DNA from: Thiomicrospira pelophila DSM 1534
Lineage (GTDB): Bacteria > Pseudomonadota > Gammaproteobacteria > Thiomicrospirales > Thiomicrospiraceae
Assembly (NCBI RefSeq): GCF_000711195.1
Contig: NZ_JOMR01000001.1
Location: forward strand, 1,674,001 to 1,738,000
Length of the DNA stretch: 64,000 bases
Direction: 5' to 3'
Below, piece by piece: positions 4,271 through 6,338 of the stretch (position 1 is the stretch's first letter; every line of letters starts with the position of its first letter). The notes under the pieces are model-generated. The model saw only the letters and a list, made by a program, of their open reading frames with translations. It was not told the DNA's origin and did no database searches. The position numbers and the translations under genes were made by a program.

Positions 4271-4699
4271 CTACAAATTACGAATTTTATATAACAACTG
4301 CAATAACCGCATTTTTAAACTGGGCTTCACTTCAATCGGATGGCGAAACTCCAGCACAACCGGCTGTTCATTCGGATTCGCTAAATCATGATTCGGCCAA
4401 TCTAAAATATCATCCAACTCAAACCCGGTATCCATCGCCACTAGCTGCCAAGGTAGTTCACGATCTCGTCCAACCGCATGCGCCCCCTGCTGATCAAACG
4501 CAATTGGCCACTTGGCCTCAATCGCCACCTCTTTGGCTTTTCCCGACTCCATCCAAATTCGGACTATTTCGTTTTTTTGCAACAAAGTGCCATAAGGTAA
4601 AAACAAATACTGCGCGTTCATATTCGTGACCGAATAATCCGTTAAAGGCGCTCCGTCCGCAAACTGAAAATTGCAAAAACCCTTTCCACAACAAGACAT
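4271..4699 (-). CDS. Conserved-looking hypothetical protein with N-terminal Cys cluster
   Basis: 142 residues, no family recognised. It begins MSCCGKGFCNF, a cysteine cluster that could bind metal. The rest is mixed, with PilZ-like or beta-rich character that I cannot confirm (for example VRIWMESGKAKEVAIEAKWP), and a basic C-terminus KMRLLQLLYKIRNL. The start is supported by AAAGGA just upstream on the minus strand. It is divergent from the flagellin gene with a 73-bp shared upstream region and convergent with amtB. There is no signal peptide, so it is probably cytoplasmic. Confidence 0.65.
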   Translation of the reverse strand: MSCCGKGFCNFQFADGAPLTDYSVTNMNAQYLFLPYGTLLQKNEIVRIWMESGKAKEVAIEAKWPIAFDQQGAHAVGRDRELPWQLVAMDTGFELDDILDWPNHDLANPNEQPVVLEFRHPIEVKPSLKMRLLQLLYKIRNL

Positions 4700-4709
4700 T
4701 AGCTTTCCT

Positions 4710-4737
4710 TTGATTTTTAAAAAATTAGGCGTATTAT
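4710..4737 (+). promoter_or_regulatory. Sigma-70-type promoter candidate for the flagellin gene
   Basis: TTGATT (4710-4715), a 16-bp spacer, and TATTAT (4732-4737), reading toward the flagellin gene 35 bp downstream. No sigma-28 (FliA) consensus TAAA-N15-GCCGATAA is visible, which is notable for a flagellin. Confidence 0.45.
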
Positions 4738-4772
4738 AGAACTACGAAACAAAATTTCTCAGGAGAATGAGT

Positions 4773-5558
4773 ATGAGCGTCGATTCTATTAACAGTGTAG
4801 GTTCGCCTTATAGCCCTTACAACCCAACCAACACTAGCTTAACAACTGGTCAGCAAATTAACCGATCGGCGGATAACGCGGCAGGCTTAGCCGTGGTGAC
4901 TGGCATGACCACAGAAATCATGGGTCAATCGGTTGGTATGCGTAACGCGAATGATGGTATGTCATTATTGCAGACCGCTGATGGCGCGTCTCGTGGCATG
5001 ACAGACAGTATCCAGCGTATGTATGAACTATCCATCCAATCAATGAACGGAACCATGAGCGCATCTCAGCGTAATATGCTCAACACTGAGTTTCAGCAGC
5101 AGATGGAAGAAATTAACCGTACAGCGGCCACCACCAAGTTTAATGATATTTCATTATTGGACGGCCAGAATCCAGACATTGAGATTGCGCTGGGTGATAG
5201 TAGCAAAAGCAACCTTACCATGCCAACTCTAACCAGCGATGCGTTGGGCTTAACTGGCATGGATTTAAGCAACCCGGCTAATGCAAGTGCGGCAGCCGAA
5301 GCCTTGTTAAACGCCACCGACCTACTTAGTGCAAGCCAAGCCAATTTTGGCGCCCAACAAAACGGCCTATATTCAGCGGTATCCAATATGGCCACCAGCC
5401 AAGAAAACAGTTACGCTAGTCGTAGCCAAATTCTTGATACCGACATGGCGCGAGCTTCTACAGATAAAGCACGCAACGATGTACTTATGCAAGCCAGCAT
5501 CATGATGCAAGTACAAGGCAACCAAGACAAATCCAATGTCCTCCAATTACTAGGTTAA
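4773..5558 (+). CDS. Compact orphan flagellin-like protein
   Basis: 261 residues from ATG 4773; this start lies 7 bases after AGGAG (4761-4765), while the ATG at 4767 is too close to it. The flagellin N-terminal signature is present in altered form, INRSADNAAGLAVVTGM, and the C-terminal D0 helix is clear, SIMMQVQGNQDKSNVLQLLG. Usual flagellins are 270-500 residues and carry about 50 residues before the DNAAGL motif; here there are only about 33, with a Pro/Tyr/Ser-rich stretch (GSPYSPYNPTNTS) where the N-terminal D0 helix should be. No other flagellar gene is in the window. It could be a minor filament, hook-junction or secreted flagellin-family protein. Family assignment is firm, role unknown. 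Confidence 0.8.
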   Translation: MSVDSINSVGSPYSPYNPTNTSLTTGQQINRSADNAAGLAVVTGMTTEIMGQSVGMRNANDGMSLLQTADGASRGMTDSIQRMYELSIQSMNGTMSASQRNMLNTEFQQQMEEINRTAATTKFNDISLLDGQNPDIEIALGDSSKSNLTMPTLTSDALGLTGMDLSNPANASAAAEALLNATDLLSASQANFGAQQNGLYSAVSNMATSQENSYASRSQILDTDMARASTDKARNDVLMQASIMMQVQGNQDKSNVLQLLG

Positions 5559-5577
5559 GATTCTCCGCCTAGTCTTA

Positions 5578-5610
5578 TGCGCCCAATACCTAAGGGCGCA
5601 TTATTTTTTT
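5578..5610 (+). terminator. Rho-independent terminator after the flagellin gene
   Basis: Stem TGCGCCC/GGGCGCA with a 9-base loop, then TTATTTTTTT, 20 bp after the flagellin stop. A possible upstream ATG for the next gene at 5577 falls inside this hairpin, which argues against that longer start. Confidence 0.88.
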
Positions 5611-5651: not shown

Positions 5652-5690
5652 CGCATAATTCGCGAATCCACTTCGGCAGGAACCCCAGCC

Positions 5691-6338
5691 ATGCAACCTC
5701 AGTATTTTGATCAAACCCAACTTGACCTCGCTATCGACAACCTGGTTGAAAAAGGCTGGCATGTTTGGCCGGATGCCATTGATTCGCAACTTTGTTTAAC
5801 TTTGCTACATGAAATCGATCAGCTTGATCAACAGGGTGAAATGCAACAAGCCGGTATTGGTCGAGGTCAAGAGCATCAACTTAACCAACGCATTCGACGC
5901 GACAGCATTCACTGGCTCGAACGCACCAGCCCTGCTCAAGCTCAATACCTGGATCTAATGCAGCAGTTACAACTCGAACTGAATCGCCAATTATTTCTTG
6001 GCTTGTTTGAATACGAAGCCCACTTTGCACTCTACTCGCCTGGTGACTTTTATAAAAAACATTGGGATAGTTTTCGTGGTGCGGCCAATCGAATGGTAAC
6101 GACCGTGAGCTATCTTAATCCCGACTGGCTAGACAGTTGGGGCGGCGAACTCGTGATCTACGACGAACAAGACACTCACATTATCGGCCAAGTCACGCCC
6201 GAAATCGGCACGCTGGTACTGTTTATGAGCGAACAAGTACCCCACGAAGTCAAACCCACCCAGCAACCAAGAGCCAGCATTGCGGGTTGGTTCCGACTTA
6301 ACACTTCCATCGCAGGGCAACTTAACCCACCCTCTTAA
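5691..6338 (+). CDS. 2-oxoglutarate/Fe(II)-dependent oxygenase
   Basis: 215 residues. The iron-binding facial triad is visible as HWD (in YKKHWDSF) and the distal H in EQVPHEV, with the 2-oxoglutarate-binding Arg in QQPRASIAGWFRL. The C-terminal jelly-roll strand pattern GGELVIYD...IGTLVLFMSE is typical of the prolyl-4-hydroxylase-like or PKHD-type fold. Start 5691 is chosen because AGGAA at 5678-5682 is 8 bases upstream and the frame before it includes a terminator and an iterated palindrome. The substrate is unknown; protein or small-molecule hydroxylation are both possible. Confidence 0.8.
   Translation: MQPQYFDQTQLDLAIDNLVEKGWHVWPDAIDSQLCLTLLHEIDQLDQQGEMQQAGIGRGQEHQLNQRIRRDSIHWLERTSPAQAQYLDLMQQLQLELNRQLFLGLFEYEAHFALYSPGDFYKKHWDSFRGAANRMVTTVSYLNPDWLDSWGGELVIYDEQDTHIIGQVTPEIGTLVLFMSEQVPHEVKPTQQPRASIAGWFRLNTSIAGQLNPPS

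What the first reader, a model, noticed from the sequence alone, without database searches (positions are those of the whole stretch)
4773..5558. Orphan compact flagellin lacking the usual N-terminal D0 helix
The gene has a clear flagellin core and C-terminal D0 helix but only about 33 residues before the DNAAGL motif, filled with a Pro/Tyr/Ser-rich segment in place of the usual coiled-coil helix. It has its own sigma-70-like promoter and terminator, no FliA box, and no flagellar neighbours. Since both D0 helices are needed for filament packing, this may not polymerise in the standard way.
Basis: partly seen in the sequence, partly recalled or inferred. Interest (0 to 1): 0.5.

Follow-up and report, generated by a model that had tools for sequence, protein, structure and literature searches.

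The report
Conserved flagellin missing its N-terminal helix
This bacterium and most of its relatives carry, besides ordinary flagellins, one extra flagellin that has lost the front helix and several charged residues that ordinary flagellins keep, so it is probably exported by the flagellum without building the tail in the usual way.

Summary
The gene (4773-5558, +) encodes a 261-aa flagellin in which a short Ser/Asn/Pro/Tyr-rich stretch replaces the N-terminal D0 helix. Close orthologs occur in 49 of 62 family genomes; each of the 48 others extracted has a ribosome site and ATG giving the same short start. They form one clade apart from canonical flagellins (60 of 60 bootstraps) and mostly occupy one slot, amtB / small unknown gene / this gene / valS. 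Seven charged positions (nearly) invariant in canonical flagellins are mostly lost, while the C-terminal D0 tail that binds FliS is kept. Genome G041 has in the slot an intact gene whose D1 is barely recognisable. A complete genome lacking FlhA and flagellins has lost this gene from an otherwise intact slot. The promoter is conserved and not FliA-like. A second FliS, encoded elsewhere, is family-wide. My reading: an exported, non-filament flagellin that works like Campylobacter FlaC or Caulobacter FljJ but belongs to neither. Function is untested; two incomplete genomes that keep it without detected flagellar markers speak against.

The parts
4773..5558 (+). coding sequence of the short-N flagellin paralog, 261 aa
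4773..4871 (+). residues 1-33: Pro/Tyr/Ser-rich N-terminal segment in place of the D0 N-helix, up to DNAAG
   Evidence: pLDDT under 50; canonical control helical; lengths
4872..5423 (+). D1 core, residues 34-217 (start by the model; border to CD0 approximate); positions 84, 113, 116, 198 and 211, charged in canonical flagellins, are mostly neutral in the orthologs (this copy itself keeps E113, R116 and E211)
5424..5555 (+). C-terminal D0 segment (residues 218-261, border approximate), highly conserved, the FliS-binding part in other flagellins
   Evidence: FliS binding from passages of PMC7248283
4728..4737 (+). GGCGTATTAT, conserved -10-like element with TATTAT at 4732-4737; weak -35-like TTGATT at 4710-4715
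4761..4765 (+). Shine-Dalgarno for the ATG at 4773
5577..5601 (+). terminator hairpin followed by a T run
4271..4699 (-). divergent neighbour of unknown family (142 aa, Cys-rich start), beside the ortholog in 46 of 48 loci; linked, but kept without it in several genomes

Best explanation
It is a flagellin paralog specialised as an export client of the flagellar type III secretion system rather than as a standard filament subunit. Shown from sequence: it lacks the N-terminal D0 helix and, across the family, charged residues that canonical flagellins keep; it keeps the C-terminal D0 segment that FliS binds in other bacteria; its promoter is conserved and not FliA-like; it is under purifying selection. 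Inferred: it is made independently of the late flagellar genes, is carried to the export gate by a FliS (perhaps the second, separately encoded one), leaves through the hollow flagellum and, having no N-terminal D0 helix to pair with its C-terminal one, is released or held only transiently instead of being built stably into the filament. Split: released outside, FlaC-like (about 0.3), or removed from the cytoplasm as a signal that the hook is finished, FljJ-like (about 0.2).
For: 49 of 62 family genomes carry it, scoring 325-409 bits against at most 251.5 for canonical flagellins. Short N-terminus with ribosome site in 48 of 48 extracted orthologs. One clade in 60 of 60 bootstraps. dN/dS 0.026 against the nearest relative, like valS 0.024 (synonymous sites near saturation). 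Charged residues lost at seven positions, present in at most 6 of 49 orthologs each and in at least 77 of 83 canonical flagellins each; C-terminal D0 motifs kept in at least 44 of 49 (positions 245-259). G041: intact ORF in the same slot with the same -10-like element, related to this family (hhalign prob 98.1, E 8e-14) far more than to canonical flagellins (prob 33), D1 motifs eroded, tail kept. G054, 100% complete, has no FlhA, no Flagellin_N protein and no FliS, and has lost this gene from an otherwise intact slot. A second FliS in 54 of 62 genomes, closer to the main genus set than the cluster FliS is in 39 of 43 genomes compared; 46 of 50 ortholog-bearing against 8 of 12 other genomes have it (Fisher p 0.039, G041 counted as without; no correction for kinship). 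Partial distance correlation given valS is 0.55 with the second FliS (p 0.0025) and about 0 with the cluster FliS when G041 is included.
Against: No secretion, binding or assembly data. Two MAGs (G035, 88%; G049, 86% complete) have the gene and the second FliS but no detected FlhA, FlgL, canonical flagellin or cluster FliS: either missing contigs or a life without flagella. Flagellated genomes without the gene exist (clean deletion in G051, which keeps four canonical flagellins; none detected in the four g2 genomes or G019). The second FliS is absent from two complete genomes that keep the gene (G053, G060) and present in g2 without it. The FliS2 co-divergence falls to 0.17 (p 0.065) without G041. 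Two conserved D1 positions (82, 106) are kept in 44 and 45 of 49, and the window's own copy keeps E113, R116 and E211. The D1 core still models as a flagellin.
Confidence: 0.5

Rival explanations
1. It is a minor structural subunit with a special place, such as the hook-filament junction, the tip or a filament terminator, inserted through D1 and the C-terminal D0 helix alone.
For: D1 fold and C-terminal D0 are kept; Caulobacter FljJ cannot form a filament alone yet lies nearest the hook (passages of PMC7591256).
Against: Charged D1 residues are lost, D1 is nearly unrecognisable in G041, the promoter is not FliA-like, and flagellated G051 does without it.
Confidence: 0.2
2. It is a cytoplasmic regulator that titrates a FliS and so tunes flagellin export or translation, never leaving the cell.
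For: Conserved FliS-binding tail, a second FliS, separate promoter. No FliW in the genome, so the known FliW-CsrA switch cannot fill that role.
Against: The export-proximal motif SLTTGQQIN is kept; the co-occurrence with the second FliS is imperfect.
Confidence: 0.17
3. It is a flagellin-derived protein that no longer needs the flagellum at all.
For: G035 and G049 keep it without detected flagellar markers.
Against: Both are 86-88% complete MAGs; G054, complete and without FlhA, lost it.
Confidence: 0.08
4. It is a decaying flagellin copy, or an artefact of a wrong start codon.
For: Loss of otherwise conserved residues; clean deletion in some lineages.
Against: Intact in 49 genomes with conserved start, promoter and slot, dN/dS 0.026, no stop inside.
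Confidence: 0.03

Closest known systems
Campylobacter jejuni FlaC (passages of PMC5466977)
   Same: A small flagellin beside the structural ones, without D2-D3; [quoted passage not shown]
   Different: FlaC is described as carrying D0 and D1; here the N-terminal half of D0 is missing. Secretion is unknown here.
Caulobacter crescentus FljJ (passages of PMC7591256)
   Same: One divergent paralog (49% identical to the others) among several flagellins, under different control, unable to form a filament alone.
   Different: FljJ works with FlbT and is cleared with FlaF; neither was sought here. No loss of the D0 helix was mentioned in the passages seen.
Helicobacter pylori HP1076 (passages of PMC7248283)
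   Same: A flagellin-D1-like protein that binds FliS and competes with flagellin.
   Different: Described there as sharing the topology of D1; not shown to be a flagellin paralog with a C-terminal D0 tail.
Canonical flagellins of the same genome (C1:835.9-839.8 kb)
   Same: D1 fold, C-terminal D0, 43-47% identical over residues 17-260.
   Different: They have the D0 N-helix and the charged residues, lie in a tandem array of four near other flagellar genes, and FliA-like boxes precede at least three of them.

Membership tests
Bacterial flagellin (PF00669 / PF00700) | Both Pfam domains above the curated cut-off | tested here: met
   100.8 and 47.2 bits against 26.6 and 23; solved-structure hits are flagellins
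Bacterial flagellin, filament-forming type | N-terminal D0 helix of about 32 residues before [ST]SG | tested here: not met
Bacterial flagellin, filament-forming type | C-terminal D0 segment (FliS binding) | tested here: met
   sequence motifs kept; binding itself not tested
Bacterial flagellin, filament-forming type | Polymerises into the filament | not testable with these tools
   needs filament purification or cryo-EM
FlaC-like secreted flagellin | Complete D0-D1 without D2-D3 | tested here: not met
   no D2-D3, but D0 is half missing
FlaC-like secreted flagellin | Secreted through the flagellum, not in the filament | not testable with these tools
   no proteomic data found
FljJ-like regulatory flagellin | FlbT / FlaF partners | not tested
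   not searched
FliW-CsrA flagellin switch | FliW present | tested here: not met
   no FliW match in the own genome; positive in 2 of 14 control genomes
FlgL (hook-associated protein 3) | Score over the TIGR02550 cut-off | tested here: not met
   62.4 bits against 127.2; a separate FlgL-like ORF lies at C1:822.7 kb

The most novel reading that the evidence does not exclude
A natural flagellin family without the N-terminal D0 helix, freed from filament building, works with a dedicated second FliS as a two-part module: a protein that the flagellum exports for its own sake, as signal of a finished hook or as an external factor. G041 would be its far end, a flagellin-derived export client whose D1 is nearly free to drift.
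Probability: 0.3. Interest if true: 0.75.

Novelty: new variant of a known kind. Interest (0 to 1): 0.55.

Why it matters
Flagellins are taken to need both D0 helices, which pair in the filament. A conserved natural paralog without one of them, in a family of free-living bacteria with several canonical flagellins for comparison, gives a ready test of what the N-terminal helix is needed for (export, cap-guided insertion or stable packing) and shows which residues are given up once that job is dropped. If it is exported but not built in, the flagellum is also used as a secretion device outside host-associated bacteria.

Tried and rejected
Wrong start or local deletion: rejected. FlgL: rejected. 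A FliA promoter: not found. Functional link to the downstream 2OG-Fe(II) oxygenase (prolyl-hydroxylase-like, PF13640) because of the Pro-rich N-terminus: dropped, as it lies beside the gene only in G000, G058 and G053 of the 49 and remains in G054, which lost the gene. A fixed partnership with the divergent 142-aa gene: weakened, as that gene is kept without the flagellin in G054, G025, G051, G019 and G020 and is missing beside it in G008 and G013, although it stays beside it in G055, G056 and G059 where amtB and valS have moved away, and their distances correlate given valS (0.45, p 0.0025 without G041; 0.28, p 0.055 with it). RNA-level constraint in the first 33 codons: rejected as special, since valS shows the same dip. 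Rfam over the window: no match. Members outside the family: none scored like one among 369 class genomes (four of them of this family; best outside 229.1 bits) or 398 phylum genomes (best outside 233.4, reported to E 1e-60 only); these are samples, and strongly diverged forms like G041's would be missed. For 27 class-level loci (36 ORF rows) the N-terminus was checked and is of normal length, but for one unclear start; L221 was not checked.

An early thought that the lost residues include the TLR5 / inter-protofilament hot spot of PMC5247705 was given up: by motif, with numbering recalled, that pair corresponds to the kept positions 82 and 106. What the lost positions do in the filament was not established; paper searches gave nothing on them. 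Paper searches listed no natural flagellin lacking the N-terminal D0 helix and nothing on this gene; the library holds open-licence papers only.

Full report
WHAT IS THERE. The window lies in a 2.1-Mb single-contig genome. A MAG named Thiomicrospira sp. Kmv17 encodes a 95% identical protein, so this is most likely a Thiomicrospira. The ORF at 4773-5558 is a flagellin by both Pfam domains, but its Flagellin_N match starts at profile position 23. The genome has six Flagellin_N matches: four canonical flagellins in tandem at C1:835.9-839.8 kb, an FlgL-like ORF at 822.7 kb and this one, 0.84 Mb away.

THE SHORT N-TERMINUS IS A FAMILY TRAIT. A search of the 62 family genomes held, repeated with a profile, separates 49 orthologs (325-409 bits) from canonical flagellins (at most 251.5 bits). 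Among the 48 orthologs other than the window's, each has an ATG with a Shine-Dalgarno-like stretch that gives a short N-terminus, leaving 22-29 residues before the invariant Gly. Canonical flagellins have an ATG with a ribosome site 32 residues before the [ST]SG motif in 87 of 88 rows, from inside the family (52 rows) and from elsewhere in the class (36 rows). The replacement is rich in Ser and Asn (25% and 13%), nearly free of Arg and Lys, and holds Pro in 33 of 49, against none of 47 family canonical flagellins. AlphaFold2 on 48 orthologs leaves residues 1-33 mostly coil at pLDDT under 50, and the last 11 residues are also below 50. The control, a canonical flagellin of the same genome with 39 relatives, is helical from residue 2. 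Against solved structures the model aligns from residue 27 on, to chain residues from about 34 on, with Z up to 22.8 over 229 residues.

ORIGIN AND SELECTION. Orthologs form one clade in 60 of 60 resampled trees and family canonical flagellins one in 55 of 60. Nonsynonymous to synonymous ratio against the nearest relative is 0.026; valS 0.024, canonical flagellin 0.011, neighbour 0.051 (synonymous sites near saturation). In the 48 loci fetched, the divergent 142-aa gene lies directly upstream in 45 and downstream in one; amtB is seen upstream in 38 and valS downstream in 42, six of the ten loci without amtB having flanks too short to show it.

WHAT WAS LOST AND KEPT. Seven positions that are Arg or Glu in canonical flagellins are mostly neutral in orthologs (own numbering; orthologs keeping the residue, of 49): 22 (0), 84 (3), 113 (5), 116 (6), 198 (0), 211 (4), 228 (0); canonical flagellins keep them in 77 to 83 of 83. 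The window's own copy still has E113, R116 and E211. Kept in orthologs: Arg 82 (44 of 49), Glu 106 (45), Asn 30, 58 and 124 (49 each) and the C-terminal D0 motif around 245-259 (44 or more). What the lost residues do in the filament was not settled here. FliS is known to bind the C-terminal D0 segment, and N- and C-terminal D0 segments pair as a coiled coil (passages of PMC7248283).

G041, A NATURAL EXPERIMENT. Sequence searches scored no ortholog there, but the slot between valS and the 142-aa gene holds an intact 262-aa ORF with the same -10-like element and a ribosome site. Profile comparison ties it to this family (prob 98.1, E 8e-14, 204 columns) far better than to canonical flagellins (prob 33). 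It averages 25% identity to the other orthologs of its genus while its valS averages 86%. Pfam sees only a sub-threshold Flagellin_C match. Length, address, promoter and tail persist; D1 does not.

LOSSES. G054, same genus and 100% complete, has no FlhA, no Flagellin_N protein and no FliS; its slot is intact except that the gene is gone. G025 and G051 show clean deletions with about 330 bp between neighbours; G051 keeps four canonical flagellins, and in G025 none was found although FlhA and an FlgL-like ORF are there. G019 and G020 have no room for the gene; G018 carries its 3' part at a contig end. No copy was detected in the four g2 genomes, G044 and G057; their slots were not seen. So the gene follows the flagellum in the clearest case and is dispensable in others. 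Against this, G035 and G049, 86-88% complete MAGs, keep it with no FlhA, FlgL, canonical flagellin or cluster FliS detected. Complete genomes would settle it.

PROMOTER. CGTAnnAT, reading as a -10 element after GCG, occurs within 100 nt upstream in 38 of 49 orthologs, mostly 38-65 nt before the ATG, against 3 of 196 control upstreams and 1.4 of 49 in shuffles. FliA boxes are no better than in shuffles, whereas 31 of 51 canonical upstreams come within 4 mismatches.

A SECOND FliS. The genome has two FliS proteins: one near the flagellin array and one at C1:208.9 kb, next to purT, with genes that look like a nucleosidase and luxS (named from recall of their sequences). The second type is found in 54 of 62 family genomes and is closer to the main genus set than the cluster FliS in 39 of 43 genomes compared. 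It is absent with the flagellin gene in G054, G025 and G051 (the last two perhaps one event) and in the incomplete G020; but G053 and G060 have the flagellin without it, and g2 has it without the flagellin. Fisher p 0.039 takes no account of kinship. Co-divergence with the flagellin given valS is 0.55 (p 0.0025) with G041 or without its sub-clade, but 0.17 (p 0.065) with the sub-clade and without G041; for the cluster FliS it stays between -0.02 and 0.14. A lead, not a proof.

READING. The simplest account of these facts is an export client of the flagellum no longer selected as a standard filament subunit. Released (FlaC-like) and export-signal (FljJ-like) versions cannot be told apart by sequence.

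Noticed in passing
window 4271-4699 (-): 142-aa protein with a Cys-rich start (MSCC...), no Pfam, NCBIfam or PHROGs match, in 54 of 62 family genomes, one copy each: an undescribed conserved family.
   Followed up: partly
L211 8874-9308 (-), genome C1:208.9 kb: A second FliS, away from the flagellar cluster, family-wide and mostly more conserved than the cluster FliS.
   Followed up: partly
L100 5775-6563 (-), genome G041: Strongly diverged copy of the short-N flagellin in the ancestral slot.
   Followed up: yes
genomes G035 and G049: MAGs with the short-N flagellin and second FliS but no detected FlhA, FlgL, canonical flagellin or cluster FliS.
   Followed up: partly
genomes G011 and G025: 99-100% complete drafts with FlhA and an FlgL-like ORF but no canonical flagellin found; perhaps lost at contig breaks.
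   Followed up: no
L222-L281, sub-clade G029, G031, G043, G052: Second FliS much diverged (46-49% against about 80% in the rest of the genus) while valS is not.
   Followed up: no
window 5682-6338 (+): 2OG-Fe(II) oxygenase between the flagellin gene and valS, seen there only in G000, G058, G053 and, without the flagellin, G054.
   Followed up: partly
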